Shown in pieces: positions 20,196 to 39,871 of a stretch of 53,490 nt of DNA. Under the pieces are notes generated by a model that was not told the origin of the DNA, did not search any database, and saw only the letters and a list, made by a program, of their open reading frames with translations. A program made the position numbers and the translations under genes. The number at the start of each line of letters is the position of its first letter. Position 1 is the stretch's first letter. The stretch is from contig JAGVQM010000026.1 in the NCBI GenBank assembly GCA_020051695.1, forward strand, positions 170,329 to 223,818, read 5' to 3'. The stretch is from Candidatus Zixiibacteriota bacterium (GTDB taxonomy: Bacteria > Zixibacteria > MSB-5A5 > WJJR01 > JAJRUJ01).

Positions 20196-20326
20196 GATCG
20201 TAGAAGTACTGCATTTCGGCCCCAAATGCCTTGGGCAGGGGTGTTTTCTCGCCGGGGGGCAAAGTGGGTTCAAACCGAATGATGCAGCAGTATTCCAAAT
20301 CACTTATCACTCCGGGGAGGTGCGCC

Positions 20327-22358: not shown

Positions 22359-23585
22359 TCACGCATACATCAATTTCAAATCCTCGATTTTTGCCCGGAC
22401 GTTGACGCGATTGGCGCAGTTGACCACGCACGAAGAACATGAGCTGCAGTTTTTCAAGCCCTTCCCCTGCGGGATGCCGTCCAGCGTAGTTCGCGCCAGA
22501 TAAAAATCGCTGTACTGCGCGGCATACATGTGCGTGCGCATCAAAGTCGGCACGTCCGTATTATGCGGGCAGGAAGCCAGGCACTGCCTGCACTGGCGGC
22601 AAAAGTTCAATCCGAGTTTGAGGTTATTGTCGGCAAGGAACTTCTGCTCCTCGGCGGTCAAAGTCAAATCAGCGGCGACCGGAAAGTCCTCGTGCAAATG
22701 CTCCAGACTGGTGAAGCCGGGAATTGATGTCGTGAAATGCTTGTTGCTCATCGCCCATTTCAATGAGGCGGTATTGATTACCGAACTGCTGTATTGTCCC
22801 AGCGCGGCGCGGTTGGGCAACTGCGCCCCCCCGGCCTGGGTCTTCATGGCAATCAAACCAATGCCTTTGGCGGCGGCGTTTTTGACCGCCTCGGCCAGCG
22901 CGTTATCATCGGCCATCGACACATTCCAGGAGGTCAGCACAACATCATAAAAACCGTCGCGGGCGGCTTCATTGATCACCTCGGTCATCCCAGCATGTGT
23001 CGTGACACCTGCCGCGCGCACCTTGCCGTCTTTTTTCAACTGCGTGAAGGCCTCTTTGGCGGCGTCATCCTGAAGGTCGGCGGCCGACGAGGTGCTGTGG
23101 ATATAGACAATATCAATATAAGCGGTCTTCAACCGCCGGAGACTGCCCTCGGTCAGTTTGATGAACTTGTCCCGGGCCTGCTGCGCGGTCAGCCCCGCCC
23201 GTTGCCCCGGCGTCCACTCCTTGGTACCGATGTTGACCTTGTCCCGGACGTTCAGACGGCTGAACACCTGCCCGACCAACTGCTCATTGCGGCCGAACTG
23301 GTAATTGGCGGCCGTGTCGTAATGCCGCACGCCGGCCTCATAAGCCGCGGCGATCACCGACGGGTCATTGCATGCGCCCACGCCCATGCTGACGATCGGC
23401 AGTTCCATACCGGTACGGCCCAGGGTACGGGTGATGAGTTTTTTTCCGGGGGCGGCAGTTTCTTTTTTGCCCTCCTGCGCCAGCGCAATGCGCGGTGCGG
23501 CCCCGGCCAGCCCCACAGCCGCCAACCCGCTCAGCGACGCAGACAAAAACCCCCGCCGTGAAAATTGCATATGGTGCTTTCCCAT
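22359..23585 (-). CDS. Exported aldo/keto reductase with two 4Fe-4S clusters
   Basis: A 408-residue protein. The N-terminus holds a twin-arginine signal (FSRRGFLSASLSG). The central aldo/keto reductase barrel shows the catalytic tetrad: Asp and Tyr in HYDTAANY, Lys in IGTKEW and His in VYIHST. The C-terminal 80 residues carry two cysteine sets, CRQCRQCLASCP and CSSCSSCVVNC, fit for two iron-sulfur clusters. Export in folded form by Tat fits a cofactor-bearing enzyme. Substrate unknown. GGAGG five bases before the ATG at 23585 sets the start. It is the last gene of the exported-protein run. Confidence 0.88.
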   Translation of the reverse strand: MGKHHMQFSRRGFLSASLSGLAAVGLAGAAPRIALAQEGKKETAAPGKKLITRTLGRTGMELPIVSMGVGACNDPSVIAAAYEAGVRHYDTAANYQFGRNEQLVGQVFSRLNVRDKVNIGTKEWTPGQRAGLTAQQARDKFIKLTEGSLRRLKTAYIDIVYIHSTSSAADLQDDAAKEAFTQLKKDGKVRAAGVTTHAGMTEVINEAARDGFYDVVLTSWNVSMADDNALAEAVKNAAAKGIGLIAMKTQAGGAQLPNRAALGQYSSSVINTASLKWAMSNKHFTTSIPGFTSLEHLHEDFPVAADLTLTAEEQKFLADNNLKLGLNFCRQCRQCLASCPHNTDVPTLMRTHMYAAQYSDFYLARTTLDGIPQGKGLKNCSSCSSCVVNCANRVNVRAKIEDLKLMYA

Positions 23586-23631
23586 TCCGTCCTCCATATT
23601 CGCACAGATGCTCGTCATCCCCGATCATCAG

Positions 23632-25209
23632 TTATTGTCCCAGACGTTGAATGCCCTGCTCGGCGTTATTGCGCAGCGTCGTTTTCAAGTCTTCGCCGAT
23701 GTTGGTATCGCCGGGCAGGACTTCCAGCACCCGGCGGTAACATTCCAGCGCATGTTGGTTGTCGCCCTGCCCGAGATAACCATCGGCCAGACTATCCCAG
23801 ACATTTGCCGAACGAGGATAACACTCGGCATTCAGCTTGAACAACGCCACCGCATCGTCCGCGCTTCCCCGCTGTAAAAACCTGTAGCCCAGCACGTTCA
23901 TCGCCGCCTCGGGAAATAATATCAGGTCCGGGTCCTGCTTACGGAATTTTTCATATAGCTCGATTGCGACACCGACCTGGTTATTGGAGATAATGTCCAC
24001 GAACTGCTGCTGGGTCGGCGGCACATCCTGCCCGGGCAGGAATTGGTGCGCGAGGAACTCGGGACCGCCCAGGTCGGCGGGGGGGCTGTTCAGGAAGGCC
24101 TGCGCCTGTTGGTCACCTTTTAATTCGGCGTCAAAAAAGGCCCGGACCATGCGGCAGATCGCCCGATACGCGCGGACTTGCACCTCAGTCGGCGTAACCG
24201 AGGAATCGGACGGCGAAAGGATTTCGTAATTGGAAAAATCCTGCGGCTGCACCCCTTTGATTTCGGTCGAATAGCGAGGTGTATATTTCAACGAAGTGAA
24301 TAAACTCAGATCGGTCGCGCCTTCCACGGGGCAATACAGATGCAGCAGCGGGACCAAAGCGCCGGCGCTGTCGTAATATGGGTTATGCCGGACCTGCTCG
24401 AGCTGCGCGTGGTCGGCAAACGTGCCGACCAGCGCGGCCACCGCCTCGACGTCCGAATTGCGCATCTGCAGCAATAGGGCAGTCGTTCCGCCCGAGCCGG
24501 TACCCAGGACACCCAGTTTGTCGTGATCGATTAAAGTGTCTCCACGCAACTCCGACAAAATGAATTCCTTGTCGCGGACCATTGATTCGAGGTCACTGGC
24601 GCTGCCGGTGGTCGCCAGCGAATGCGTGCTTAACGGGTGGGTGGTCGCCACGACATACCCGCAGCCAGCCAGGTATTCGCACAGGATAATATTTTCCGTG
24701 ATCCCGGTTTGCCAGTGTGGGTGATAGATGATCAGGGGGAACGGCCCGGACGCCGGTGGCGCGTTGCGTACCGCCTGCAACGGCACACTCATCAATTCCA
24801 GCACCCGTCCGCCGTCATTATTGAACAGCCGGAGCAACAGGCCGTTTTCGCGATTTTGGATGTTGGAAAGAAAATCGATAAACCTCTCGTCCTCCGGATA
24901 GGGAAACGCGTACTCGCTGTAAGTCATCGTGTACTGGTCCGCAGCGGGTTGGGCGGGATACCAGACACAAATCTGCATCGGCCGCGCGCGTTCGCCGGGC
25001 AGCAATTCGCCGAAATAATTCTTCTTAGGCCGGAAGGCCCGCGAGTAATCATAACTCTCCTGTGTCCGGAAGCCGACGCCGTACGGTCCCGGCGCCAGGC
25101 CCGCCAACGGTTGCTGCGACCGGGCGGCATCGGCGGCGACGATCAGCACGACGGCAGCAACAACCGCAATCCGTAAATGTCGGCAACATTTCGTCAACGA
25201 TGTGGTCAT
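23632..25209 (-). CDS. Exported alpha/beta hydrolase with C-terminal TPR
   Basis: A 525-residue protein. Signal peptide 1-31 (ends ADAARSQ). The hydrolase domain (about 45-400) resembles secreted dienelactone or PAF-acetylhydrolase-like enzymes: PYGVGFRTQ, FPLIIYHPHWQ and a nucleophile elbow LGVLGTGSGGTTAL, where Thr replaces the first Gly of GxSxG. A TPR region follows at about 430-520 (LYEKF..., ANVWDSLADGYLGQGDNQHALECYRR core). Activity is likely but the substrate cannot be told. GGGAGGGGG precedes the ATG. A 10-bp inverted repeat (25243-25275) lies in its upstream region. Confidence 0.8.
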   Translation of the reverse strand: MTTSLTKCCRHLRIAVVAAVVLIVAADAARSQQPLAGLAPGPYGVGFRTQESYDYSRAFRPKKNYFGELLPGERARPMQICVWYPAQPAADQYTMTYSEYAFPYPEDERFIDFLSNIQNRENGLLLRLFNNDGGRVLELMSVPLQAVRNAPPASGPFPLIIYHPHWQTGITENIILCEYLAGCGYVVATTHPLSTHSLATTGSASDLESMVRDKEFILSELRGDTLIDHDKLGVLGTGSGGTTALLLQMRNSDVEAVAALVGTFADHAQLEQVRHNPYYDSAGALVPLLHLYCPVEGATDLSLFTSLKYTPRYSTEIKGVQPQDFSNYEILSPSDSSVTPTEVQVRAYRAICRMVRAFFDAELKGDQQAQAFLNSPPADLGGPEFLAHQFLPGQDVPPTQQQFVDIISNNQVGVAIELYEKFRKQDPDLILFPEAAMNVLGYRFLQRGSADDAVALFKLNAECYPRSANVWDSLADGYLGQGDNQHALECYRRVLEVLPGDTNIGEDLKTTLRNNAEQGIQRLGQ

Positions 25210-25242
25210 CTTCCCCCTCCCACTTATATTTAATCTACTACC

Positions 25243-25275
25243 ATCTTCCGGCGCAAAAATTCCATGCCAGAAGAT
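25243..25275. repeat. Imperfect inverted repeat upstream of the hydrolase gene
   Basis: ATCTTCCGGC (25243-25252) and GCCAGAAGAT (25266-25275) form a 10-bp stem with one mismatch around 13 bases. It lies 34 to 66 bases upstream of the ATG at 25209 and overlaps a weak -35/-10 pair (TTGCGC, 17 bases, TTAAAT on the minus strand). It may be an operator. No T-tract follows, so a terminator is unlikely. Confidence 0.4.
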
Positions 25276-25431
25276 TAAATCTGCCTCTCGTCAGGAAAAA
25301 CATGACGCCGGGGAAAAAGAGCAAGGATTATTATTGCCGCCAACAGCAGCTGCCCGTCACCTGTGGACCGTTTCCGCCATACCGGACTTGAGAGAGAGCA
25401 GGTCCCGGTGCGCTACGTGGAGCGGAACACC

Positions 25432-28400
25432 CTAAAACGTACAGCCGTCGCACAGATCATTGCGGCTGCGATATATATAATTAATCAGCAGGACCGCATC
25501 CAGCGGGGAATACGCGCCATCACAATTGAGGTCCCCCGTGTCGAACGGACACCGAGGCCGGCTGCACAGATCGTAACGGCCGCGGAAAATCCAGTTAATC
25601 AAATACACGACATCGATCGGCTGGACGTAACTGTCGCAGTTCATATCACCGGGGACGCCGCACTCACAGACCGTGAGCGTCATGTCCCCGGCGTTCTGCG
25701 GCTCGGCGCCGGAAAGGAAAACCGTTTTATCGGCCGTGCCCCGGCTTCCCCCCTGCGCGTGAAGCACCAGCGAATCTCCAGCGCTGTAAGGCAGCGCCGC
25801 ACCCGTGGACGGATGTTTGAGGTTTCCCAAATTGATCACCCAGCGGCCATTACCGTCGGTTAGCACGATCAGCGGTGACGACTTGGCCAGGCCAATCGTG
25901 GCGGCAACCTGGATATCGCCTGCCGGAGCGGCGCCCTCATCCAGCACCCGGCCATGCACCACGCGGGGCACGCCAGCCCCGATCGGCGTAGTGGTAAAGG
26001 TATAATACGCCCCGCCGTTGTTGTCGACCGTTCCCCCGGACAATACTTCATAGATGTAAGTCGTGGACGGTTGCAGGCCGGTCAGTTCGACATAATGCAA
26101 ATCGTCGTAGGTGCCGGTTTCGGCCTGGGATTTTTCGAGGACCGAGGAAATCCCATAGTGCACGTCACCACCGATCACAATATCGGTGACCCAGGAAATG
26201 ACGGCGGATGTACTGGTCAGATTTCCGGCATTGATATCGAAGATCTCGGCGGATGATGATGCCGCCAGCATTTTCGGCAGTGTTGCCGGGATGGATTCAT
26301 CGACGACTTCGGTTTTCACAGGATCGTACACTGGGGGTGCGGGAATCAATTCGGGATTAATCGTCGCATAACCCGAATTGCCGTCTGCCGCAACGATTCC
26401 CGTCGGTTTGGTGATCGTGATCATCCCCTCGGCGGATACCGACAATGTGGTGATTGTGAGGGTTTTGTACGCCTGATTGTTGTCTTCGTTCATCTCTTCG
26501 ATCTCATTGAATCTGTCGGCGACGATATAAATATCAAAAATTCCCGGTGTGTCGAAGGTGAGATTGGCGCCAAACCAGCCGCTGGAATCCCCGGGAGCTA
26601 TCGTCGGCCAACCAAAGTCGCCTAACCACTCCCCTCCGGAGGAGGGATCGCCGTTGTAGTAAGAAACCCGCGGAGTTGGGGCAATTGCCGGGCCGGCGTT
26701 GTAGAGATTAACACCGACCCAGAGTTCTCCGGGAGGGGCCGGATTGGTAAAGAACCAGATATTGGTTGGTGTAAGAAGCAAATCGGGTAAAATCGGCGGC
26801 GGCAGGGTATCACAGGTACTGGTAAACCAGTCGGTATGCTCATCGACTTTCACCAGATATCCGGCGCCCGAGACCACCGGAAAATCGGTGCCCGACGGCC
26901 CGCTTTGGGCGATCTGCCAGGTCTGTGAGGCCGCGTTCAATGCCTGCGCTTCGGTGCAGCCGGGAATATCATCCAGTAGTTCAAAGCCCGTATAACAAGT
27001 ATTGGTATTAGGCACGCCGATAAGATTGATCCCCGCTTTAAGGAACTGCCCGCCGTGTTCGGTTACCGCGCGGCCGCGGAAACTGGCCAGCCCGGCCCCG
27101 GTCGCGCGCGCCAGGAAACCGTTGCGCAGGGGAATTGAAAAATCGTCACCGATGATCGTGCTGCCGATATCGACGGCACTCAGCCACGATTGGCGGTCGG
27201 GGTCCCAGCCGATGACTTCCGTGCAATTGTCGATTAGAGGGATCGTCTCGAACGCGGTGGGGATTTCCGGCGGGGCCAGCGGCCAGTTCAAAAATGTCCA
27301 GCCGGAAACCACGGCCTTGGCGCTGGTCGCCAGACCGACGGGGACGACTTTCAACCGACGGTTATTCGACTCATCAGGTTCGTAAATCACGTCGCCGACA
27401 TCGGCCCAGGCATGAATTTCATAATCCCTGGCCATCGAAAAATAGGTGCCCATGTTCAAGTTCAATTGGAATGTCCCGCCCGGAGCCAGGCTGGCAATAA
27501 TCCATGGCGACATCAATAATGGCCACCCTCCGACATCCGGATCACCGTCATACACCTGCAAGGGAATGCCGTTGGCCGTCACTTCACCGTTGTTGGTGAC
27601 GATGATGCTGAGTACGGCGCTTTGCCCTACTTCCGGTTCGGCTGGGGTCGTATATAAATCACCCGGCTCGATCACCAGATCCGGCGGCATGTAGACATGC
27701 AGATCGATGACACCCTGATTATTGATTTCTTCGGATTCAGCAATCACATCTGTTGGATCGGCAATGACATATATTTCATGGTCTCCGGTCAACTCGAGCG
27801 TATTCCAGGTAACCTGTGCCGTGACGAATGCGCCCTTCGCAATTGAGGCAATAAGCTGATCGGCCCCGATTTGGCTTCCGCCCAGTTCCGGGTCTCCATC
27901 ATAGAATCGCACGACGACACTCGTCGCGGTGGTCAAACCAAGGTTCCTGATTTTGGCGGTGATATTAATCACATCAGATTCGACCGGTGTCGGATCGGAG
28001 GGCACGATTTCCGTGCCATAGACCGACAGATCAGCGGCGAGATAACTCAGCCCGAGCACCGCCATCGCCGTATGGTATGGATCATCACCCCAACTGCCGT
28101 TGACCGCCTGCGTGGATTCCAGGTAGTTGATGGCATCGATCAGGATGGGAGTGGTTTGATCGGCTTTAAGAATGGCCGTAATCGCCAGCGCGGTTTCATA
28201 GGGATTGCTCGCCCCGCTGCCGAAGCCGTCGTCGACGTGTTGCTGAGTCTTCAGCCAGGTCACTCCGGCTTGAATCTGGGTGGCGACATTGAATTCTCCA
28301 GCCCACGAGGCAAGGGCGAGGACCGCCTCGGCGGTGAAGTACACCAGCCCATCATCCCCGTCCACAAACCCCCAACTGCCGTTGGCGTTTTGCGTTGCCG

Positions 28401-28881
28401 CAAGAAAATTCAATCCGGCCAGTACGGCGTCCTGGTCTTCATACCCTGCGGCCGCCAGGGCCTGCAGAGCCAATGCCGTCTCCAACGTGTTGCTGCCATA
28501 GCCATAGCGATAGCCCCAGCCGCCGTCGAAATTCTGCATCCCGGCCAGGGAATCAACCAGCACGGAGTTGGCCTCGCCACAGCGGGCGGCCGTAAATATC
28601 TTGCGCGCCAGGTCGTCAGTGCAGCCGACCGGCGAAGCGGTTACCGCCAATAAACCGTCGCCGACGATATCCGGATCGGCAGCCAGTCGGTGGAGAACAT
28701 CGACAATCACGGCGGCATCACGGAACTCGGTGCCGCTGTCACCCCAGTATCCCGTGGACAGCTGATTGGCCTCCAGCCAGGCCACGCCCTCGGAAATCGG
28801 TGTTGCTGCCGCTGCTCCGGCGAAGAGCATAAAAAGCATAACCGTTGTTGTTATCCTGCGCCATCGTCTCCCGGCTATCAT
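25432..28881 (-). CDS. Secreted dockerin protein with prenyltransferase-like toroid and CARDB domains
   Basis: An 1149-residue exported protein. Signal peptide 1-22. Residues about 25-285 hold five prenyltransferase/squalene-cyclase-like repeats with QxxxGxWG cores (ANQLSTGYWGD, MQNFDGGWG, TQNANGSWG, TQAVNGSWG). CARDB-like domains follow near 300-410, 420-520 and 720-830. A fibronectin III domain lies near 895-975 (SAVISWVTD, STTYIYEV). A carboxypeptidase-regulatory-like domain precedes the C-terminal dockerin (about 1070-1149) with two Ca-binding loops, GDMNCDSYVQPIDVVYLIN and GDLNCDGAYSPLDAVLLIN. The ATG at 28881 with GGGAG nine bases upstream starts the signal; an ATG at 28908 has no ribosome site. 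Confidence 0.85.
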   Translation of the reverse strand: MIAGRRWRRITTTVMLFMLFAGAAAATPISEGVAWLEANQLSTGYWGDSGTEFRDAAVIVDVLHRLAADPDIVGDGLLAVTASPVGCTDDLARKIFTAARCGEANSVLVDSLAGMQNFDGGWGYRYGYGSNTLETALALQALAAAGYEDQDAVLAGLNFLAATQNANGSWGFVDGDDGLVYFTAEAVLALASWAGEFNVATQIQAGVTWLKTQQHVDDGFGSGASNPYETALAITAILKADQTTPILIDAINYLESTQAVNGSWGDDPYHTAMAVLGLSYLAADLSVYGTEIVPSDPTPVESDVINITAKIRNLGLTTATSVVVRFYDGDPELGGSQIGADQLIASIAKGAFVTAQVTWNTLELTGDHEIYVIADPTDVIAESEEINNQGVIDLHVYMPPDLVIEPGDLYTTPAEPEVGQSAVLSIIVTNNGEVTANGIPLQVYDGDPDVGGWPLLMSPWIIASLAPGGTFQLNLNMGTYFSMARDYEIHAWADVGDVIYEPDESNNRRLKVVPVGLATSAKAVVSGWTFLNWPLAPPEIPTAFETIPLIDNCTEVIGWDPDRQSWLSAVDIGSTIIGDDFSIPLRNGFLARATGAGLASFRGRAVTEHGGQFLKAGINLIGVPNTNTCYTGFELLDDIPGCTEAQALNAASQTWQIAQSGPSGTDFPVVSGAGYLVKVDEHTDWFTSTCDTLPPPILPDLLLTPTNIWFFTNPAPPGELWVGVNLYNAGPAIAPTPRVSYYNGDPSSGGEWLGDFGWPTIAPGDSSGWFGANLTFDTPGIFDIYIVADRFNEIEEMNEDNNQAYKTLTITTLSVSAEGMITITKPTGIVAADGNSGYATINPELIPAPPVYDPVKTEVVDESIPATLPKMLAASSSAEIFDINAGNLTSTSAVISWVTDIVIGGDVHYGISSVLEKSQAETGTYDDLHYVELTGLQPSTTYIYEVLSGGTVDNNGGAYYTFTTTPIGAGVPRVVHGRVLDEGAAPAGDIQVAATIGLAKSSPLIVLTDGNGRWVINLGNLKHPSTGAALPYSAGDSLVLHAQGGSRGTADKTVFLSGAEPQNAGDMTLTVCECGVPGDMNCDSYVQPIDVVYLINWIFRGRYDLCSRPRCPFDTGDLNCDGAYSPLDAVLLINYIYRSRNDLCDGCTF

Positions 28882-28957
28882 GACTATGTTCTCCCGTATG
28901 TTCCGCATTCGCGGTTAACACCCCACCGAAATGGCGGAGTCAAACGTGTCGATTTGT

Positions 28958-30061
28958 TCACGGCTCCTGGCGTTGCCAACTTTTGATCACCCAGCGTTCA
29001 TTTTCGAGAGTAAATATCATCGCGACGCGCTGCGTCCCGGTTTCCTCCGCCCCCTGGCGGCCCAGGCGCAGTGTGAATTCGGCGGCAACGTCGCCGCCTT
29101 GCGGAGTCATCTCCATCAAATCACAGGTGATGGCGGGCACTCCTGCCGCCGCCAAATCCGCATATCCTTCATTCAGCAATTCGCCGAAGGCCTCACGGTC
29201 CAGCGTCCCATTGCACAAGAAATTTTCAGATAGCAGGGTTTTGGCCCGCGCGATATCTCCGGCGTTCCAGGCCGTGGTGAAGTCCGCAACGATTGCCAAC
29301 ATTTCCTCTTGAGATGCCGGCAGGGCAGCCACGACCTTCTCCGATCCGGCGGCGGGACGATCTAAAAACCACGGTGCATACGGGCTGCCGGCCGCGGGGC
29401 CGATGATCTCGTTCAACATTTGTGTCTGTTGAATTTCGAAGGCCGGCGGCAGGCGGCGCCCTTCCAGCCGGTTGACAATCCCCGCTTCCTGCAATTTGTC
29501 CCATTGGGCAACCGGCGGCCCGACAACGACCGTGACGCGGTTGGAAACCACTTCCACCGGCGGATTGGGGCAGGCATATTGCGCGTAGAGCTGATATGTT
29601 CCCGCTCCGGGGAAAATATACTCCAGAGCAGCGGTATTCGACAGCGACGGAAACTTGCCGAACAGGAATGTTTCATGGACCAGCCGTTCTCCCGGCGCCA
29701 ATTCTCGAGGACGGAGATACGAATCCCGTGTTTCCCAGCGCAGCGTCGTGAAATTGCCATCCAGCGTATCGCCGCTAACCAGGAAAAACCGCACGAACCC
29801 GTCCGCCGGATCGACCGACGGTAACAACTCGATTCCCTGTGCGGCGTTATTCGCCAGCTCCAGCCGCACATACACCGGCTCACCCAGCGCGATAGACTTG
29901 GTGAACGAACTGCTGTCCGCCGACGGCGCCGCGCGGTATCCGGCCACCGGAGTATTAATCAACGATAACTTCAACTCCAGCGCCTGTCCCCCCGATGGGG
30001 AAAACATGAAGACCGCCATCATGGCGGCACATACCCATATCCACCGATTATATCTGGTCAT
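28958..30061 (-). CDS. Exported protein with C-terminal NTF2-like domain
   Basis: A 367-residue exported protein I do not recognise as a whole. Signal peptide 1-28 (ends GGQALE). The first part is beta-rich (LGEPVYVRLELANNAAQGIEL core; ALEYIFPGAGTYQLYAQY), like an immunoglobulin-like or intrinsic inhibitor domain. The last 120 residues resemble an NTF2/SnoaL-like domain: MLAIVADFTTAWNAGDIARAK, then RVAMIFTLENERWVIKSWQR at the end. GGAGAGGGGC stands directly before the ATG at 30061. It lies 53 bases after the metzincin gene and 76 bases before the dockerin gene, in an operon-like run. Confidence 0.75.
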   Translation of the reverse strand: MTRYNRWIWVCAAMMAVFMFSPSGGQALELKLSLINTPVAGYRAAPSADSSSFTKSIALGEPVYVRLELANNAAQGIELLPSVDPADGFVRFFLVSGDTLDGNFTTLRWETRDSYLRPRELAPGERLVHETFLFGKFPSLSNTAALEYIFPGAGTYQLYAQYACPNPPVEVVSNRVTVVVGPPVAQWDKLQEAGIVNRLEGRRLPPAFEIQQTQMLNEIIGPAAGSPYAPWFLDRPAAGSEKVVAALPASQEEMLAIVADFTTAWNAGDIARAKTLLSENFLCNGTLDREAFGELLNEGYADLAAAGVPAITCDLMEMTPQGGDVAAEFTLRLGRQGAEETGTQRVAMIFTLENERWVIKSWQRQEP

Positions 30062-30114
30062 GCCCCTCTCCAATTTTCAAGCCACAAACTCATTCTGACA
30101 TATACCTCCACATA

Positions 30115-33100
30115 TTACGGATGCGGGATTCTGCGGATTTTATCCAATGTAATCTCGTTGAAATCCGGACTGTTTCGTACCGACGATTGCGCCATCAATC
30201 CCGCGCTGGCGCAGGGCGCAACGCCGACAGTGCAATCACTGTGTAATCCGCCAAACAAATGGCCGATTTCATGGGCCACGGTATGACCCTCGCTTAATCC
30301 GCTGGCCGGCACCGGAACCATGGCGTCTCCGCCGCGGAATATTTCGAGATAGATATTGGCACCGATGCCATTCGGCCCGATGTCAGTGACAATCCCCAGG
30401 ACGCCTCCCTCCCCATCAGCGTCGTCATCAACGTCGGTCGAATGCTGGAGTGAACCGCGAAGATACACGAGCCAGAAATCGTTGTTGGCTTCGTGCGCCG
30501 ACAAATCGAATTGCCACCCCAACATTACCGAATCGGCATCGTCGGCCGGGATATTGGCGATGAACGTCAGGTTCCCCTGATGATTGCCGACATCCTGTAC
30601 GGGTAGCGCATATGCCGGGGCAAACGCGGTCGGCGCCACCGTCAAATCCGGATCAGCGACGTCATTACCGTTGGCCAGATCATCATCAGTGATCCGATAA
30701 GGGATGCGCAACTCGGCAACGGTCACGGTGCTGCCGGCGGGATTAACCGCAGTAATAGGCATAGCCGGTCCCGTCCCGATCTTCACGGTTCCACCGAGGA
30801 AATCATTCCAGTCGATCGGCGTTTCACTATGCGCGGTGATATTCAACGTCAGCACAGTGCTGCTGTTGGTGATCTGGGTCACCATGCCCGACATCGTGCT
30901 GTTATTCCACCAGTCGTTGTCTTTGGCCGAGAACGGCAGCGGAGTAGCACACACATTGATCCCCGCGGCGCGGACCAGCCGCAACTTCCCGTTCCCGTCA
31001 ATGGGGGCAATATCGTGTGTACCGGCAACACTTAAAGTCCCATCCTCAAAGCGGCCATTCCGGGACGGTGCGCTGTCTAAATCTTTGGATCCGTCGCGCA
31101 GGTCGTTGCTGACCACAACTTGCGTGGCAGTGGCGCTGTTGCCGGTGTTGAAACTGGTAATGAAGCCCTCGGCGTAATTATTCACGACGTCGCCCATGGA
31201 ATCGAACTCGACATGCAGTTTGCGCCAGACCGTCAGCACCTTTGAGGCATAATCATCCGCTTCACGGATCTCTTTCTGCGCCGGTGTCCCGGCGATCAAC
31301 GGATTGATGATGCGTTGTTTATCGGCGTTGACTGCGCCCAACGCAGACTCATCGTTTTCCAGATCATCGAGGAAATCCTGGTCGCCGTTACCCACGATGC
31401 GGAAATTATCCCCCGGTTGGCCGGTCACCTGAAACTCAACAGTTCCCGCTTGACTGTTGAACGCGTGCGTCGCTTTGTTGTCGCTGGAAGTCACAAACTC
31501 GCCGTCATAACTTGGAAAGGTCCCGCGATTATCGAAAAACAGCGTTTCGTCGTCGAGAGGATCTGCATCCGCCGTCGGATCATCAACGTCGAACGACATG
31601 AAACTGATGTTCAGCGGTTCGACGGGAGCGACGGTCAGCGTCACCTCGACATTGACGCGGTTGCGCGGTTCCGTCTCCACGGCCGACCCGACCAACCGCG
31701 CGCCGGGGAACACCCGGTCGGAGCCGGGATCTAATCCGGCCGGCCAGTTGGGATCGGCATCGAGGACATTGTCGTCATTGACACTATTGTTGATCCCGGT
31801 CCAGACGATTTGATCGATCCCAATCACAGTGATTGCGACCCAATCGCCGCAATCAGACAGATTGCTCAGCGACGATTTCAATTTTACGCCGGGATGGGCG
31901 GTATGCGGCGCGATACCCTCCACCCAGAAATCTTTGACCAGCTGATCGCCTTCCACCCGGAAATCGCCCGGCAGCGGCATGTCCGTCCCTGGTATATATT
32001 GCGTGCCTTTGGTGGCCGATTTCCAGATTTTAATGGCGGCCGTACCGCCGAAAGCTTCGATCTTTGCTGTGCCGCCGATATCTTTAGGTTCAATCCGCAG
32101 CGTTATTTTGCACATTTCATCTTCACCGGCGACAGCCACGTCGGTGGTTCCGAGATCAAATTTGTCATCCTGGTCATCGTTATCAAGATTGACAAAAGTC
32201 TGGGCGCCCTGCGATAATTCGACAGCCTCGCCTATTTCCGTTTCCGCCGGGTCGAGAACCGGCGGCCGGCAGACCGCCAGATCCGCCTTGCCGATAATGA
32301 CTTCCTTCTCCAGCTCGGTGCAACCGCAGTCAATGGCCGGACCACCGCACCTGAACGTGAACGTGCCGGTGCCAAAAGCCTCGGCAATCTGTTTGATGGT
32401 CAAATCAACCGGGAATTCCTTCCGCTCACTGTGCAACATGTCGCACTCGCCGTCGTCGTCATACCCCCAATACTGCAGCTCGGGTACGATGAATGTCCAC
32501 TTGTCTTCACTTAACCAGCAATAGATATCATTGACGGCAGCGGGTTCGACCTCGATCGGCCCAATGGGCAGCGTGCACAGCATGTCCGGGTATGAGATGA
32601 CCCAAATTTGAACCGTAGCCCCGCCGGAATGCCCGCCGGAAATCAAATACCCGGCGGCGCCGGTGGACGGTTCCATGTCGATCCAGCCGGTGCCCGTCCA
32701 TTCATAATAGATGAGCGGATCGCGCGGAATGAGTACGTCGTGGCCCTGGTTAAGGGCGTTAATGACCGCATTGATGACGCTTGGCGGATGAGTCAGCGTC
32801 CCGATGTTGCCGGGAGTGACATCGACCACTGGTATCCCCTGTTCACCGGCCAGTTGCAGGATCTTGATCGTGGAGACTGCTTCTTCGCCGAACTCGGTTT
32901 CGAAGACGCGATTTTCCTGATAGGAGCCGTCGGCGCCGCCCAGCCGCATATAATCTCCCGGATCACCAGTCCCGTAATATGAGTACGGCCCCAGTATCTT
33001 GCGGTCCGCATCGACGACCATACCCGTCCACTCGAAGGTGATAGGTGTCATCCCCATGAACAGCACGCGGACGGTATTTTCCACGATGGCCTCGGAGACA

Positions 33101-35208
33101 TCGTTGAGTATCATCATATGCATCAATTCGGCGGCGTCATCTCCGGCCATGTCGACATTATTAAGGTAGGTCAGCGCGGTCTGGTGCAAGACCTGGCCCA
33201 AATAGTCCTCCGCGCAACCGGCCGTCGGCGGTTCGAATTCCGCCGGGATGGCGTCCTCGGTATCGATGCCGATCCCCTGATAATTGCCGGCAATGATGAC
33301 ATTGGAAATACTGGGGACCTGGCTGCCGGCGCCGGTGGGCGGATAAAAATGCATATCCGATGTATGGGTAACGCCCATCATCACATACCCGCCGCCGGTG
33401 GCCACGACACAGCCGTCGATTTTCAAAACCGGCTTGAGATCCACGGTCCACGGGTCGGTGACATTAAAAATGCCTCCCGCATCGTCAATGATCTGCTGGT
33501 CGGCAGGGGTCGCGCCGATGTAGGAAATGGTCACCTGTTTTTGCACAATTTCGGGCAAACTTGTCGTATAGTCGAGGTCCATCCCCATGCCGCCGTACAA
33601 ATGAAAGCGGATTCGATATCTCAGTGCGGCGGGAATTTCCGAATACGAGGCATCCCGCGTCAACTGCATGTAGGGCAATGTGCCCGGTAAATAGCCGAAT
33701 TGCTCCGCGCGGATTGCCCGCTTGCGGACGATATCGGCGACGGTCGCGCCGGGATGGTCCAGCGCCAGCGAATCGGCCAGTAACGACCGAAAATATCCCA
33801 CGGGCGTGCTGTCTTGCAGTCCGGCGATATAATTGTCGAGGAGTGTCTGGACATCGAAGGCCATCTCATCCACGAGATCGATGCCGCCTTCATGCGTGTA
33901 CTGCTTGAACGCCGGGTCCAGCGGAACCCACATAAACCCCGCGCTGTCTGAAATCGTGCCGCGATAATTGGCATAGGGGAGCCAGGCCTCGACCCATACC
34001 CGCTCACACTGGATGGCCTCCAGCGGAGTGCCGATCCCCGTCACCTGGAACCCGGCAGTATGCAGCAGGTTCGCGGCGGTGTTCGCGTCATCGATCCCGG
34101 TCCAGTTGGTCACCTGGTCGATCGGCAGTTCCACATAACCCTGCACGTAACGCGCCGGGATGCCGGACACCCGCAACAGGGCAAGCAGCAGCGAGGCCTG
34201 GTCGTAGTCGTTCCCCCGCCGGTGGTCAAGTGTCTGTTGTGCGCCTTTGCGTGACCCACGGTAGGGTTCCCAGGCGATGGTGTTGCGCACATATTCAAAG
34301 ATGGCAATCGGCGAATGGTCCAATTCCGCGGCCAGCGCGGTAATTTCGTCGGTGAACCGTACATCGATGTTTTCCGTCAGGTCGGCCGGATCGTAGCCCG
34401 CGGCTTCTTCCACACCCAGGGCCAAATCGGCGGCTTCGATCGCGGGAAGCTGGTCGCGGCCGACCACGCGGGGGGTGCGGGTTTCCATAATTGTGGCTGC
34501 CGGTTGCGCTCCCAAATGCGGCGGCTCGGGTTGGTAAAAATTGTCGCCAAAGAACGCCTTTAACCGGGCAAGTACCTCGGCAAACCGTTGTTGGTCACCC
34601 GCGGCCCCGGCGGCATTCAGATCATCAAGCAAGGTGAGGAGTTGTTCCCCGGCAGCCCGGAATTGCCGTGTTATCTCGGTGGCGCGAGTTGCCTTACCTT
34701 CAGGATAGGACCGCAACGCAAAATCACCGGCAAGCCCCTCGAAATCCGCCAGCAGCGCGGATTGCGCGCGCGCCAATTTCGCCCGAATCTCGGCAAGCCG
34801 ATTAAGCAGTTCCGCCGCAGGAAGATGGGCCGCATCGAGATCATCAAATACCACTTGGCGACAGGCCACAATACTATGTAAAAACGCCAGCCGGCTTCGG
34901 CTGGTCTGCGCCCCAGCTTCACCAAGAACCCGGCGGCGAATTTCCAGAATTTGTTCACCGGGGGAGCCAATCTTCGGGGCCGTACCACTCCGCTGTAAAC
35001 CAACCAAATCCTTGAAATCAACGACCTGACGGTCGCCCATATATAACCCGGGGTTTTCCGCCAGCACATTACCGGTCATAACCAGTACGCCAAGGATTGT
35101 CCAGACCACTGCCATCCGCAGGCAAACCCGGTGACTTGTGGGTATATCCCGCTGTCTATCAAGGTGATAATTCTGGCTCATAGACGTATTCCCGCTAAAA
35201 GAACTCAT
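30115..35208 (-). CDS. Giant secreted protein: degenerate transglutaminase-like domain plus C-terminal metzincin
   Basis: A 1697-residue exported protein. The signal anchor near residues 32-52 has MAVVWTILGVLVMTGNVLA. Residues about 290-440 match the transglutaminase-like fold (EYVRNTIAWEP, LLALLRVSGIPARYVQGYVE, VWVEAW, WVPLDP). The catalytic Cys is replaced by Asp334 and the His by Arg403, so it is probably not a transglutaminase. The C-terminus has HEIGHLFGGLH (His1646), a metzincin zinc motif, with a Met-turn candidate GLMAQ about 14 residues later. The middle is beta-rich and acidic. GAGGGA six bases before the ATG at 35208 sets the start. A likely promoter lies about 105 bases upstream. 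Confidence 0.82.
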   Translation of the reverse strand: MSSFSGNTSMSQNYHLDRQRDIPTSHRVCLRMAVVWTILGVLVMTGNVLAENPGLYMGDRQVVDFKDLVGLQRSGTAPKIGSPGEQILEIRRRVLGEAGAQTSRSRLAFLHSIVACRQVVFDDLDAAHLPAAELLNRLAEIRAKLARAQSALLADFEGLAGDFALRSYPEGKATRATEITRQFRAAGEQLLTLLDDLNAAGAAGDQQRFAEVLARLKAFFGDNFYQPEPPHLGAQPAATIMETRTPRVVGRDQLPAIEAADLALGVEEAAGYDPADLTENIDVRFTDEITALAAELDHSPIAIFEYVRNTIAWEPYRGSRKGAQQTLDHRRGNDYDQASLLLALLRVSGIPARYVQGYVELPIDQVTNWTGIDDANTAANLLHTAGFQVTGIGTPLEAIQCERVWVEAWLPYANYRGTISDSAGFMWVPLDPAFKQYTHEGGIDLVDEMAFDVQTLLDNYIAGLQDSTPVGYFRSLLADSLALDHPGATVADIVRKRAIRAEQFGYLPGTLPYMQLTRDASYSEIPAALRYRIRFHLYGGMGMDLDYTTSLPEIVQKQVTISYIGATPADQQIIDDAGGIFNVTDPWTVDLKPVLKIDGCVVATGGGYVMMGVTHTSDMHFYPPTGAGSQVPSISNVIIAGNYQGIGIDTEDAIPAEFEPPTAGCAEDYLGQVLHQTALTYLNNVDMAGDDAAELMHMMILNDVSEAIVENTVRVLFMGMTPITFEWTGMVVDADRKILGPYSYYGTGDPGDYMRLGGADGSYQENRVFETEFGEEAVSTIKILQLAGEQGIPVVDVTPGNIGTLTHPPSVINAVINALNQGHDVLIPRDPLIYYEWTGTGWIDMEPSTGAAGYLISGGHSGGATVQIWVISYPDMLCTLPIGPIEVEPAAVNDIYCWLSEDKWTFIVPELQYWGYDDDGECDMLHSERKEFPVDLTIKQIAEAFGTGTFTFRCGGPAIDCGCTELEKEVIIGKADLAVCRPPVLDPAETEIGEAVELSQGAQTFVNLDNDDQDDKFDLGTTDVAVAGEDEMCKITLRIEPKDIGGTAKIEAFGGTAAIKIWKSATKGTQYIPGTDMPLPGDFRVEGDQLVKDFWVEGIAPHTAHPGVKLKSSLSNLSDCGDWVAITVIGIDQIVWTGINNSVNDDNVLDADPNWPAGLDPGSDRVFPGARLVGSAVETEPRNRVNVEVTLTVAPVEPLNISFMSFDVDDPTADADPLDDETLFFDNRGTFPSYDGEFVTSSDNKATHAFNSQAGTVEFQVTGQPGDNFRIVGNGDQDFLDDLENDESALGAVNADKQRIINPLIAGTPAQKEIREADDYASKVLTVWRKLHVEFDSMGDVVNNYAEGFITSFNTGNSATATQVVVSNDLRDGSKDLDSAPSRNGRFEDGTLSVAGTHDIAPIDGNGKLRLVRAAGINVCATPLPFSAKDNDWWNNSTMSGMVTQITNSSTVLTLNITAHSETPIDWNDFLGGTVKIGTGPAMPITAVNPAGSTVTVAELRIPYRITDDDLANGNDVADPDLTVAPTAFAPAYALPVQDVGNHQGNLTFIANIPADDADSVMLGWQFDLSAHEANNDFWLVYLRGSLQHSTDVDDDADGEGGVLGIVTDIGPNGIGANIYLEIFRGGDAMVPVPASGLSEGHTVAHEIGHLFGGLHSDCTVGVAPCASAGLMAQSSVRNSPDFNEITLDKIRRIPHP

Positions 35209-35313
35209 GGATATTCCCTCTGTCGGTTGTTCTGGTAGCACCTGTTCATCTATTTCGTTCGGCTGGTATGTTCGAATGGCTTTCCACCCAATTCAAACCT
35301 CTCATCATATCTT

Positions 35314-35341
35314 AAATTAATCAAAATTCTATTATTGTCAA
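35314..35341 (-). promoter_or_regulatory. Likely promoter of the exported-protein run
   Basis: On the minus strand a consensus TTGACA (35341-35336) is followed after 16 bases by TAATTT (35319-35314), a weak -10. The region is strongly AT-rich. A TATGAT lies further downstream but at the wrong distance. The leader to the ATG would be about 100 bases. Confidence 0.4.
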
Positions 35342-35822
35342 TTGAATCTGCGATGTCCTGCGCTCCTTTTATCTTGATTTGTAGGCCTGGTTTCTTGTGC
35401 GCTATCAGACGCGGATCCTTGACCATACATTACTGTTGGCCGACTCCGAGATGACAGGTACGTCAGCTCCCTGCCGAGTGTGGTAAACATCCCATAGAGT
35501 AACACCCCAGAAATCAGCATAACCCATTGAATAATTATGATTTACCTGAACCGCAGACAGGGACTCCAGTTCTCCTGCGACCGGTCGATACAAACCAGTG
35601 GACGGAAAACCGGCCTTAAGCCGGAGGCTCATCGGATAAGAGCATGGCATATAGAGATTATCGGACCGCCGAAAGAAGGCCCTTTGCCCGACCGTGGGCG
35701 TCTCCCGTTTCGCCGTGTGCCAAACGTAATCTCAACCAATCCCGGATCCGCCGGTCTTGTCTTCCGGAATATTTGTGAAGTCCGCAGGAGAAATTGATGC
35801 TGGTCGGAATTGGAATACAGCA
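35342..35822. other. Divergent intergenic region before the histidine kinase
   Basis: About 480 bases between the exported-protein run and the histidine kinase gene. Reading frames on both strands are short and lack ribosome sites and family features. No clear promoter for the kinase was seen, and no terminator or RNA gene. If the response regulator controls the neighbouring run, its operator may lie here or just before the TTGACA at 35336-35341. Confidence 0.4.
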
Positions 35823-38800
35823 ATGAGCAAAAGCACACCAAGACAAATACCGGGATCGAAAGTGCCGGAAAAGGAGATAGAGGAAACCTCGCTCACAGTA
35901 CCCCAGGTGTTCTATGTACTGCTGGGCATCATTGTGCTGTCAATCGGAGGTATGATTGCCTTCAATTACGATACGCTGTTGCAGCTGAGCGCACAGTATA
36001 CTCAATTGCTTGACGCCTCGCAGGGTATCAAACATGAGACCATTGAAAGTCACCTCCTGCTGGATCAGGCCGCTGACAGTCCGTTTACTGCAAACATCCC
36101 GGCGGTGTGGGAGCACCTCGCCCGGGCCGACCGGCACTCCTCAACGCTGGCGGAAGTACTTTCATCGAAGGGAAGCGTGCTCCGCACCGACGATCTGGAA
36201 ATCCACGAAACTTTCCGGAAACTGCGTGGGGAACTGGCGCTGTATGAACAATTCAGCCGCGAATTATTGAATGAGGCCGTTGCTCCGTCCGGCAATCCTG
36301 ATTCCGCCCGGGTGTACCAGTCGGCCCTGGAAAGTGTGATTAACTCCTCCGATAAACTGGAAGCGGCGGTCAATCGTTCCATTACCGATGACCTGCGCCG
36401 GTCGCAGATCAATCAAATTTTCCTGGCGTCGGTTTGCGTGGCGCTTTCTCTATCCATTGTGGTTGTTTTTTTCCGACTGGAACGCCGACGCAAGGAGATC
36501 ATAAAACAAATCCAGAATGCCAATCTGGCGCTCCGGGAGGAAATCGATGCTCGATGCCACACCGAAATGGCGTTGCGGGACCGCGAATGCAGTCTGCGGC
36601 AGACGCAGAAGATGGCGCATGTGGGCAGTTGGGAACTGGATACGGCTTCAGGATTGATCCGCCTTTCCGGTGAAATCTGCCGGATTTATGGTATCCCGGA
36701 AGGCAGTCAATTTGAAAGTCTGGAGAAGTCATTTGAAATCATACATCCCGACGACAGAGACAAAGTCGCTGCGACCGCCCATGGATACATCGATACCGGC
36801 GCGCTGCCGCATGCGGTGACATTCCGCATTGTCCGGCCCGACGGCGATGTGCGGTGGATTATAGCTACACAACCCGAAGCCCGGCGGTCGGGAGCGGACG
36901 ATGACGCGAAAATTATGATCGGCACCGTCCAGGACATCACCGAAATCAAACTGGCCGAACAGGAGCTGCGCGCCAGTGAAAAACGGTACCGGACACTGGT
37001 CGAAACCATGAGTGAAGGGTTGGCGGTGACCGACGAGAATGACCGCCTGACGTTCGTCAATCAGGCCTTATGCAGAATGTATGAGACTTCAACCGATACA
37101 TTTGTCGGTTTTCCGGTGACCGATTTCCTGGATGAAATGAATCAGGGAATATACCTGCAGCGTCTGCAATCAGCACGGGAAGGCCTGGTAAACCCCTATG
37201 AACTGACTGCCGTGGCGAATGGACGTGAAAAACCGCTGATGATCTCCCCGACGGCCTTCTTTGACACGGAGGGTAAATTCAAAGGCGGCATGGCCGTGGT
37301 CACCGATCTGGCCGACCGCAAACGGATTGAAAACAGACTGCGGGAAACATCAAGTATCATCAACCGCAGCCCGGCGGTGGCGTTTCTGTGGAAAAATCAG
37401 AACGGCCGGCCGGTCGAATTCGTAACGGAGAACGTGAGGCAGCTGACCGGGTATGCGGCAGATGATTTCCTGTCCGGCAAGCTGTTGTACACGGAGATTA
37501 TCCATCCCGAAGACCGGGACCGTGTCGACCGGGAAATCGCCGGCTATGCCGACGGCCCGACGAACACGGGGTTTGTGCTTCATCCCCATCGCATCGTCAC
37601 CGGCACGGACGACATTAAATGGCTGGAGACGGTCACCGAAATCAGACGGGATGATCAGGGCGTAATCACCCATTTTCAGGGTCTTGTCATCGATGTAACC
37701 GAACGGAAACTGGCGGAGGATCAACTGCAGCAACGGACACAGGAACTTGATGCCCGCATCAGGGAATTACGCTGCCTGTACGGCGCGACGCAGTTGATGG
37801 ACTCGCCGGAGCGCAGTCCGCAAGAGGTTTTCTGCGCCCTGGTCGAATTGATCCCCCCGGCAATGCAGGCGCCTTCACAAACATGCGCCCTTATTGCGGT
37901 CGAGGGGCGCAAATATGCCGGACCCACTTTTGTCCAAACCGCATGGCGCGAACAAGCCGAGATCTCTGTCGAAGGCGCAACAGCAGGGCACATAGAGGTC
38001 TGCCTTCTCGAAAATCCGCCAAACAACGGCAGGGCGGCTTTTCTGCCGGAAGAACTCAAGCTGCTCCACGCTCTGGCCGGACTGATTGGCCGCTATATCG
38101 AACGGCAGCGGACGGAAAAAAGGTTGGAGCGTATTCGGGAAGAATATGCCGCTGTCGCCAACATGACCAGCGATATTATTGTGAAATTCGACGCGGAATA
38201 TGACTGGACGTTTGTTAATGATGGCGCATGCGCATTTTGGGGCAAGCCGCGAGAGCAATTGCTCCAGCAAAACTTTTTGCAATACATGCACCCGGACGAT
38301 ATCCGCGAAACCACAGCGACGATTCTGGAAATAATTGCCGGCAAAAAGAGCATTCACCGCACTGTCAATCGCCAGAAAACTCCTCAGGGCTGGCGGGAAA
38401 TCGAATGGAGCGGCGTGCCCCTGTACGACCTTCACGGCAGATACATCGGCATGCAGGCGACCGGGCGCGACGTCACCGAGCAGCGGCAGGCCGAACGGAC
38501 CCTGTTCGAATACCAACAACAATTGCGACGGCTGGCCGCGGAGCTGTCGGCCACCGAGGAACAGGAACGCCGGCAGTTGGCCACCAAATTGCATGACGGC
38601 ACCGCACAATTGCTGGCGTTTTCCCGCATGCGCCTGATCACCCTGCTGCGCCAAGGCCAACTGGCGCCGGAGACGGCGCAAACGCTGACCACCGTCAAAC
38701 AACAAATTGAAACCGCCCTCGAACAGACAAAATCCCTGACTCTCGAATTGAGTCCGCCGGTGTTGTACGAATTGGAATTCAATGACGCCATCGAGTGGCT

Positions 38801-39227
38801 GGCGGAGTGGGCGCAATCGGAGCACGGCATCAGCACCGAATTTGCCTATGACGGCCCGCCGGTGGCGCCGGCCGGTGATATCCGCGCCGTCCTGTTTCAG
38901 GCAACCCGGGAACTGTTGATTAATATCGTCAAGCACGCCGAGGCCACCTGGGCCAGGATTACTCTCCGCCGCAACAACAACATGGTCGAAATCGAAGTGG
39001 CCGACAACGGCAAGGGGTTCAACCCTGCCACGGTGGGTATCCGGCGCGACGGCGGCGGGTTTGGACTGTTCAATATCCGCGAACGGTTGAACCTGTGCGG
39101 CGGCTGTCTGCGCATTGACTCCGGACCGGGACGGGCCAGCCGCGTGACGGTCGTCGCCCCCATCGACAAAGACAAACGAACTGAAAGAGAGGTCCACCAT
39201 GAGTATCAAAATAGTACTGGCGGATGA
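35823..39227 (+). CDS. Membrane histidine kinase with several PAS domains (NarL-type)
   Basis: A 1134-residue sensor kinase. Transmembrane helices near 26-47 and 197-218 enclose a helical periplasmic sensor of about 150 residues. Four PAS domains lie at about 260-375, 386-503, 505-626 and 770-890 (tell-tale FEIIHPDDRDKV, IIHPEDRDRVD, YMHPDDIRE), with a GAF-like domain near 640-760. The HisKA_3 domain has the phospho-acceptor in LATKLHDGTAQLL (His924). The ATPase domain has the N box ELLINIVKHAEA, DNGKGF and GGGFGLFNIRER. All catalytic features are present. It overlaps the response regulator by 29 bases. The ATG at 35823 starts at the natural N-terminus. Confidence 0.93.
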   Translation: MSKSTPRQIPGSKVPEKEIEETSLTVPQVFYVLLGIIVLSIGGMIAFNYDTLLQLSAQYTQLLDASQGIKHETIESHLLLDQAADSPFTANIPAVWEHLARADRHSSTLAEVLSSKGSVLRTDDLEIHETFRKLRGELALYEQFSRELLNEAVAPSGNPDSARVYQSALESVINSSDKLEAAVNRSITDDLRRSQINQIFLASVCVALSLSIVVVFFRLERRRKEIIKQIQNANLALREEIDARCHTEMALRDRECSLRQTQKMAHVGSWELDTASGLIRLSGEICRIYGIPEGSQFESLEKSFEIIHPDDRDKVAATAHGYIDTGALPHAVTFRIVRPDGDVRWIIATQPEARRSGADDDAKIMIGTVQDITEIKLAEQELRASEKRYRTLVETMSEGLAVTDENDRLTFVNQALCRMYETSTDTFVGFPVTDFLDEMNQGIYLQRLQSAREGLVNPYELTAVANGREKPLMISPTAFFDTEGKFKGGMAVVTDLADRKRIENRLRETSSIINRSPAVAFLWKNQNGRPVEFVTENVRQLTGYAADDFLSGKLLYTEIIHPEDRDRVDREIAGYADGPTNTGFVLHPHRIVTGTDDIKWLETVTEIRRDDQGVITHFQGLVIDVTERKLAEDQLQQRTQELDARIRELRCLYGATQLMDSPERSPQEVFCALVELIPPAMQAPSQTCALIAVEGRKYAGPTFVQTAWREQAEISVEGATAGHIEVCLLENPPNNGRAAFLPEELKLLHALAGLIGRYIERQRTEKRLERIREEYAAVANMTSDIIVKFDAEYDWTFVNDGACAFWGKPREQLLQQNFLQYMHPDDIRETTATILEIIAGKKSIHRTVNRQKTPQGWREIEWSGVPLYDLHGRYIGMQATGRDVTEQRQAERTLFEYQQQLRRLAAELSATEEQERRQLATKLHDGTAQLLAFSRMRLITLLRQGQLAPETAQTLTTVKQQIETALEQTKSLTLELSPPVLYELEFNDAIEWLAEWAQSEHGISTEFAYDGPPVAPAGDIRAVLFQATRELLINIVKHAEATWARITLRRNNNMVEIEVADNGKGFNPATVGIRRDGGGFGLFNIRERLNLCGGCLRIDSGPGRASRVTVVAPIDKDKRTEREVHHEYQNSTGG

Positions 39228-39852
39228 CCATAAACTGATCCGCGACGGGCTGCGACATTTTTTGGAAAGCGAACAGCAGATGGAAGTCCTGGCCGAGACG
39301 GACAACGGTCGGGATGCCGTGCGCCTGGCCGCCGAACTGGAACCCGACGTGGTCATCCTTGATGTTTCCATGCCCGATATGAACGGCATTGAAGCCGCGC
39401 GGCAGATCAACAGCGGCAGATCCCGGACCAAAGTCATGGCGCTTTCCATGCACTCGGACCGCCGCTTTGTCGCCCGGATGTTCCAGGCCGGCGCCGCCGC
39501 CTATCTGGTCAAAGATACGGCGATCGAGGAAGTCGCCGATGCTATCCGGACGGTCATCGACGGGAAAATGTACCTGTCTCCGCAGATCACCGGCACAGTC
39601 ATTGATGATTATGTCCAACACATGACCGGCGGCACGTCCTCTTCGCCGCTGCCGCTGACCTCCCGCGAACAGGAGGTCCTGCAATTGATCGCCGAGGGCA
39701 ACAGCACGCGGGAGATCGCCGCCATCCTGTGCCTCAGCGGCAAAACCGTGGACACCCACCGGCGGCAGATCATGGACAAACTGGATATCCACAGCATCGC
39801 CGAACTGACGAAATACGCCGTGCGTGAGGGGCTGACCACGATTGACGCGTGA
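39199..39852 (+). CDS. LuxR/NarL-type response regulator
   Basis: A 217-residue regulator. The receiver domain has the acidic pocket LADDH (Asp9, Asp10), phospho-acceptor Asp55 in VVILDVSMPDMNG, Ser/Thr and the Lys of YLVKD. The C-terminal LuxR-type helix-turn-helix reads LTSREQEVLQLIAEGNSTREIAAILCLSGKTVDTH in its core segments. GAGAGGT stands six bases before the ATG. The 29-base overlap with the kinase gene makes a cognate pair almost certain. The target genes are unknown; the divergent exported-protein run is the nearest candidate. Confidence 0.95.
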   Translation: MSIKIVLADDHKLIRDGLRHFLESEQQMEVLAETDNGRDAVRLAAELEPDVVILDVSMPDMNGIEAARQINSGRSRTKVMALSMHSDRRFVARMFQAGAAAYLVKDTAIEEVADAIRTVIDGKMYLSPQITGTVIDDYVQHMTGGTSSSPLPLTSREQEVLQLIAEGNSTREIAAILCLSGKTVDTHRRQIMDKLDIHSIAELTKYAVREGLTTIDA

Positions 39853-39871
39853 GAGCGTTGAAAGCATGATG

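What the first reader, a model, noticed from the sequence alone, without database searches (positions are those of the whole stretch)
22359..39852. Two-component system divergent from a five-gene exported-protein run
A multi-PAS histidine kinase and LuxR-type regulator face a closely spaced minus-strand run (metzincin, NTF2-like, dockerin, hydrolase, iron-sulfur reductase) with mostly short gaps of 46 to 76 bases. The run may be one regulon producing an extracellular module with proteolytic, hydrolytic and redox functions. I know of no described system with this gene set.
Basis: inference. Interest (0 to 1): 0.55.

Follow-up and report, generated by a model that had tools for sequence, protein, structure and literature searches.

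The report
Variable-tip exotoxin locus with toroid partner
The gene run most likely encodes a secreted weapon with a swappable tip, a neighbouring gene that may protect the producer, and a ring-shaped partner protein that accompanies this weapon family in unrelated bacteria, while the neighbouring sensor pair and two enzyme genes appear to be separate.

Summary
The genes are present as described. Their reading as one five-gene extracellular regulon is mostly not supported. P0005 lacks RHS repeats and ends in a metzincin-motif tip. Across Zixibacteria, Nitrospirota and plasmids the module carries different tips (NlpC/P60, M15, PLA2, HNH, ART). A small gene follows directly in 45 of 52 intact copies; where two such genes are alike, the tips are alike (8 of 8 pairs; 0 of 20,000 shuffles). 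A toroid gene often follows. The window gives P0005 (effector), P0004 (NTF2-like, immunity position only), P0003 (toroid-CARDB-dockerin). The toroid occurs in 4 of 6 TG-positive and 0 of 126 TG-negative Zixibacteria, and 31 of 40 versus 1 of 40 Nitrospirota. The hydrolase-reductase pair is a separate conserved unit; the kinase pair is not a conserved partner. The papers searched do not describe the toroid partner. New variant of a known kind.

The parts
30115..35208 (-). P0005: exported effector; inactive TG module, Ig-like region, C-terminal metzincin-motif tip
   Evidence: Transglut_core 1.2e-14; 47% over 972 aligned positions with G123 and 33% with G057, with homology ending at residues ~870-990
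32602..34392 (-). TG module shared with TG-RHS and RHS-less relatives (about residues 284-880)
   Evidence: alignment A4; Cys position is D in the window, His position R, Asp retained
30235..30273 (-). HEIGHLFGGLHSD zinc motif of the tip; Met-turn-like AGLMAQ at about 30193
   Evidence: by eye in the translation; reprolysin models E 0.0019-0.02, below cut-off; PDB metalloprotease matches only E 0.12 or worse
28958..30061 (-). P0004: exported beta-rich plus NTF2/SnoaL protein in the immunity-gene position
   Evidence: SnoaL_2 4.2e-7; 53 bp after P0005; homologues without TG in G005 and G007
25432..28908 (-). P0003: toroid partner; toroid + 3 CARDB + Pur_ac_phosph_N + dockerin-like tail
   Evidence: 41% over nearly its whole length with the G123 partner
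28039..28797 (-). alpha/alpha toroid region of P0003 (about residues 38-290)
   Evidence: alignments A2 and A7
25474..25653 (-). dockerin-like tail of P0003
   Evidence: Dockerin_1 E 4e-4, 21.0 bits vs cut-off 22.9; many similar tails in the same genome
23632..25209 (-). P0002: exported hydrolase-like + TPR protein, probably a separate unit
   Evidence: 222-bp gap; conserved pair with P0001 in G057
22359..23585 (-). P0001: Tat-leader aldo/keto reductase with 4Fe-4S region (start 23585 or 23570 likely)
35823..39227 (+). P0006: membrane multi-PAS HisKA_3 kinase (alternative TTG start 35757)
39199..39852 (+). P0007: NarL/LuxR-type response regulator
19250..20074 (+). cohesin + Por-type sorting-tail protein, a possible surface receptor for dockerin tails
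   Evidence: Cohesin 2.5e-6, Por_Secre_tail 1.5e-7, both over cut-off

Best explanation
P0005-P0004-P0003 is one locus of a polymorphic-toxin family built on an inactive TG module. P0005 is exported; its conserved N-terminal ~1000 residues are the carrier and its C-terminal metzincin-motif region is this copy's effector. P0004, next in line, is the candidate protector. P0003 is the dedicated toroid partner, held at the surface by its dockerin-like tail, which presents or anchors the effector by binding the dead TG module. Shown here: homology, module boundaries, tip exchange, tip/next-gene co-segregation in relatives, toroid co-occurrence and linkage. Inferred: toxicity, protease activity, TG-toroid binding, surface docking, and immunity by P0004. 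P0002-P0001 and the kinase pair are neighbours, not parts.
For: Module homology to plasmid proteins, mostly TG-RHS (17 plasmids) and to 52 of 395 Nitrospirota genomes. Cys position 0 of 61 Cys, as in Zhang 2012 (PMC3482391, section 19, read). C-terms of 52 intact copies: NlpC/P60 5, M15 2, PLA2 2, HINT 1, HNH 1, ART 1, TGL 1. Copies 55-65% identical whose alignment stops at the module end; 66 pairs over 50% identical with unrelated tips against 17 with related tips. Adjacent same-strand gene in 45 of 52, 41 of those 45 with gap -75 to +40 bp; tip/next-gene co-segregation 8 of 8 vs 0 of 20,000 shuffles. Toroid downstream within 4 kb in 21 of 37 copies vs upstream in 6 of 33, none on the opposite strand. 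Toroid in 4 of 6 TG+ vs 0 of 126 TG- Zixibacteria and 31 of 40 TG+ vs 1 of 40 TG- Nitrospirota; leaving out the genomes that supplied the profile, 17 of 26 vs 1 of 40, p 2e-8. Order TG, small gene or genes, toroid in the window and in Zixibacteria G057 and G123.
Against: P0005 has no RHS repeats, which the 2012 paper says always follow the dead TG. P0004 homologues in G005 and G007 sit beside an HDOD-like protein and a long repeat-rich protein (named by eye), with no HE..H metalloprotease beside them. The metzincin assignment is motif-level; the AlphaFold model is unusable (pLDDT 33). No other metzincin tip was found by Pfam among the 52. 16 of 37 copies have no toroid within 4 kb downstream. 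In G024 the module and its tail lie far apart, each ending at an N run. Nothing tests TG-toroid binding.
Confidence: 0.62

Rival explanations
1. The run is a surface degradative module: a secreted protease/hydrolase/reductase set, scaffolded by dockerin-cohesin and induced by the kinase pair.
For: All five proteins look exported; dockerin-like tail and a nearby cohesin gene; divergent kinase pair; short gaps.
Against: P0002-P0001 travel apart from TG-toroid in G057; no full-length kinase relative in 10 genomes; dockerin-like tails occur on dozens of proteins of this genome, so the tail is not specific; the TG family's tips are toxin-like and exchangeable.
Confidence: 0.15
2. P0005 is a domesticated extracellular metalloprotease that took over a TG-toxin carrier, P0004 is an inhibitor or chaperone for it, and no intercellular killing is involved.
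For: Metzincin tips were not seen by Pfam in the other 52 copies; the P0004 family also lives outside TG loci; single TG copy in the genome.
Against: Same gene order and partner as the toxin-like relatives; G123, the closest relative, has a different tip (TGL).
Confidence: 0.2
3. The toroid follows TG genes only because both belong to one mobile cassette that moves as a block, without working together.
For: Patchy distribution (6 of 132 Zixibacteria); plasmid copies, eight of the nine fetched without a toroid detected in the stretch.
Against: Same order over deep divergence in two phyla and, reversed, directly upstream in Spartinivicinus; toroid kept while tips and next genes change.
Confidence: 0.12

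Closest known systems
TG-RHS polymorphic toxins (inactive transglutaminase class of Zhang et al. 2012, PMC3482391)
   Same: Export signal, dead TG module, exchangeable C-terminal tip, adjacent variable small gene
   Different: P0005 has no RHS repeats; a toroid-CARDB-dockerin partner gene is added. The words toroid, CARDB, dockerin and prenyltransferase do not occur in the held text of that paper
RHS-less TG toxins of Nitrospirota found here (for example G175 C12, L123)
   Same: TG module, short tip, small gene, toroid gene, same strand
   Different: Tips are mostly up to 270 residues (32 of 40); the window's tip is ~700 residues with a metzincin motif; toroid tails differ (CARDB, F5/8, FG-GAP instead of dockerin)
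Squalene-hopene cyclase / complement TED toroids
   Same: alpha/alpha toroid by profile
   Different: No DXDD/DCTAE cyclase motif and no CGEQ thioester motif in 23 of 23 partner toroids (pattern test; motifs recalled)
Cellulosome dockerin-cohesin pairs
   Same: Dockerin-like tail on P0003, cohesin gene in the window
   Different: The tail is below the Pfam cut-off and shared by many proteins of the genome

Membership tests
Polymorphic toxin system | Conserved carrier with exchangeable C-terminal tip | tested here: met
Polymorphic toxin system | Immunity gene directly downstream, matched to the tip | tested here: inconclusive
   Met for the family (8 of 8 similar pairs); for P0004 only position, and its homologues occur without TG
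Polymorphic toxin system | Export signal | tested here: met
   Hydrophobic leader by eye in P0005; signal-like stretch in 38 of 46 next-gene products by a rough heuristic
Polymorphic toxin system | Toxicity of the tip | not testable with these tools
   needs expression
Inactive-TG class (Zhang 2012) | TG domain with lost triad residues | tested here: met
   Cys position 0 of 61 Cys; window D, R, D
Inactive-TG class (Zhang 2012) | TG followed by RHS repeats | tested here: not met
   No RHS model hits P0005; RHS_repeat in 7 of 52 relatives' C-terminal parts of at most 450 residues, so RHS is not general for the module
Metzincin proteases | HExxHxxGxxH/D plus Met-turn | tested here: met
   by eye; motif definition recalled
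Metzincin proteases | Metzincin fold | tested here: inconclusive
   Pfam below cut-off; model pLDDT 33
Type I dockerin | Score over curated cut-off | tested here: not met
   21.0 vs 22.9 bits; the whole-genome scan listed 25 dockerins at E 1e-3, none of them this one
NarL-type two-component system | HisKA_3 kinase + receiver-LuxR regulator | tested here: met

The most novel reading that the evidence does not exclude
The dead TG module and the toroid protein form a binding pair that is the core of a so far undescribed toxin-presentation machine in Zixibacteria, Nitrospirota and some Gammaproteobacteria: the toroid is a surface platform (via dockerin, CARDB, F5/8 or TSP3 tails) onto which TG-carried effectors of many kinds are loaded, replacing or supplementing the RHS shell.
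Probability: 0.35. Interest if true: 0.75.

Novelty: new variant of a known kind. Interest (0 to 1): 0.55.

Why it matters
[quoted passage not shown] A conserved toroid partner gives a concrete binding candidate and makes the question testable. It also suggests that RHS repeats are not essential to this toxin class, and brings Zixibacteria and many Nitrospirota into it.

Tried and rejected
Genomic-island idea: no clear composition shift and no repeat of the tRNA end in 18000-42000, despite a tRNA-Ser at 39871-39955. Promoter and terminator scans: near chance. Structure prediction of the tip and of P0004: pLDDT 33 and 39, so no fold search was made. PHROGs: no hits for P0003-P0005; PADLOC: only the P0007 DNA-binding region to CARF models. 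Tip versus plasmids and window toroid versus plasmids: no match. Toroid as a cyclase or thioester protein: motifs absent. Papers: the searches gave no description of a toroid partner. Of PMC3482391 I read section 19 and search passages; of PMC10318531 only passages; other papers only as search listings. The library lacks most subscription papers.

Limits of the counts: the 40 Nitrospirota neighbourhoods are from the stronger hits, not all hits. The 40 TG-positive genomes are 40 of 52 (weak or partial ones and G521 dropped), and the 40 TG-negative ones were picked by list order and spaced numbers from 343. The toroid profile was built from TG neighbours, hence the re-count without them. Genes were called by a simple longest-ORF script. 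The toroid-versus-TG comparison does not correct for relatedness of the genomes.

Full report
WHAT IS THERE. All seven ORFs named in the finding are present, and the domain calls are broadly right. Gaps in the run are 53, 49 or 76, 222, and 13 to 61 bp by plausible starts, so the run is interrupted before P0002. The kinase and regulator genes overlap by 29 bp and are an ordinary NarL-type pair. The genome is a Candidatus Zixiibacteriota relative: its relatives G057 and G024 match named Zixiibacteriota MAG records.

CONSERVATION. In a search of 58 genomes that included the window's own, P0005 has strong matches elsewhere only in G057, G024 and G003. In G057 the TG gene and a toroid gene are 2.4 kb apart, while the P0002-P0001 pair is on another contig. 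In G024 the toroid lies about 4 kb from a piece carrying the later part of the TG protein. Phylum-wide, the TG profile hits 6 of 132 genomes and the toroid profile 4 of 132, all four within the six (Fisher 1.2e-6). The fourth, G123, has a 1418-residue TG protein (47% identity over 972 aligned positions), two small ORFs, and a 1131-residue toroid-CARDB-dockerin protein, 41% identical to P0003 over nearly its whole length. P0004 has homologues only in G005 and G007 among 10 other genomes, outside any TG locus. The kinase has no full-length relative among 10 other genomes, and a similar kinase-regulator pair occurs in only 2 of 56 TG neighbourhoods.

WHICH FAMILY. tblastn of the TG part finds 17 plasmids, mostly annotated as RHS proteins. 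Zhang et al. 2012 describe dead TG domains after the signal peptide in RHS polymorphic toxins (section 19). On 61 aligned modules the catalytic Cys position is never Cys, His is kept in 53 and Asp in 60; the window has D, R and D. A profile search finds the module in 52 of 395 Nitrospirota genomes, often as compact ~1000-residue ORFs and in tandem copies.

POLYMORPHIC BEHAVIOUR. From 56 neighbourhoods, 60 module-ends were found, of which 52 genes are not cut (40 Nitrospirota, 3 Zixibacteria, 9 plasmid). Their C-terminal parts match NlpC/P60 (5), peptidase M15 (2), phospholipase A2 (2), HINT, HNH, an ART and TGL (1 each), among others; many match nothing. Proteins up to 65% identical over ~690 residues stop aligning at the module end. 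Short ORFs holding only the module end plus a tip lie beside full genes (L130, L127, L121), like the exchange cassettes of polymorphic toxins (recalled comparison). A same-strand gene follows directly in 45 of 52, at -75 to +40 bp in 41 of those 45. The eight pairs of similar next genes all have similar tips (0 of 20,000 shuffles). 38 of 46 next-gene products, P0004 included, have a signal- or membrane-like stretch by a rough heuristic, which would fit protection in the envelope.

THE TOROID. It lies downstream on the same strand within 4 kb in 21 of 37 copies with that much DNA held, against 6 of 33 upstream, and never on the opposite strand in these loci. In Spartinivicinus ruber it is directly upstream of a TG-RHS gene; in the other eight plasmid loci none was detected in the stretch fetched. 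In Nitrospirota it occurs in 31 of 40 TG-positive and 1 of 40 TG-negative genomes (17 of 26 versus 1 of 40 when genomes that supplied the profile are left out). Cyclase and thioester motifs are absent in 23 of 23. Tails vary by lineage: dockerin-like in the window and G123, CARDB/F5-8/FG-GAP in Nitrospirota, TSP3-like in Spartinivicinus (by eye). This pattern, constant toroid with varied tips and tails, is what one expects of a carrier partner; that it binds the TG module is inference.

READING OF THE WINDOW. P0005 is the effector with a metzincin-motif tip, P0004 the candidate protector by position, and P0003 the partner. A cohesin gene with a sorting tail 5 kb away (19250-20074) could hold P0003 at the surface, but similar dockerin tails are common in this genome. 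P0002-P0001 is a separate conserved pair, and the kinase pair may or may not regulate any of it.

NOVELTY. The toxin class is known. The RHS-less form with a linked toroid partner was not found in the papers searched (calls listed under tried and rejected), so I rate it a new variant of a known kind, interest 0.55. The weakest links are the motif-level protease call, P0004 as protector, and the untested TG-toroid contact.

Noticed in passing
window 23632-25209(-) and 22359-23618(-): Hydrolase-TPR plus Tat aldo/keto reductase with 4Fe-4S recurs as an adjacent pair in G057 C273 (44 and 54% identity); an unassigned exported hydrolase-redox pair.
   Followed up: partly
window 20231-22243(+): Protein with a Peptidase_S74 (endosialidase chaperone) domain next to the run; homologues lie a few kb from the truncated TG gene in G003 (L048).
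   Followed up: no
L048 9266-10477(-): G003 keeps only the first ~340 residues of the TG protein in a 403-residue ORF; it looks like a decayed copy.
   Followed up: no
L070 6900-11156(-): The tip of the G123 TG protein matches TGL, a protein-glutamine gamma-glutamyltransferase (1.1e-33): a cross-linking-enzyme domain on a dead transglutaminase carrier.
   Followed up: no
Nitrospirota, for example G361 C52 and G264 C1: Some toroids sit inside open frames of about 5,400-6,400 residues, in these two genomes near TG genes.
   Followed up: no
G000 whole genome: 25 type I dockerins by Pfam at E 1e-3 and 66 matches to P0003, mostly its tail, in one genome: a very large dockerin-tagged surface proteome.
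   Followed up: partly
L046 6649-6748 and 12746-12845: 100-base N runs in the G024 assembly fall inside the toroid and TG genes, whose other TG part ends in an N run 0.6 Mb away: likely mis-scaffolding.
   Followed up: no
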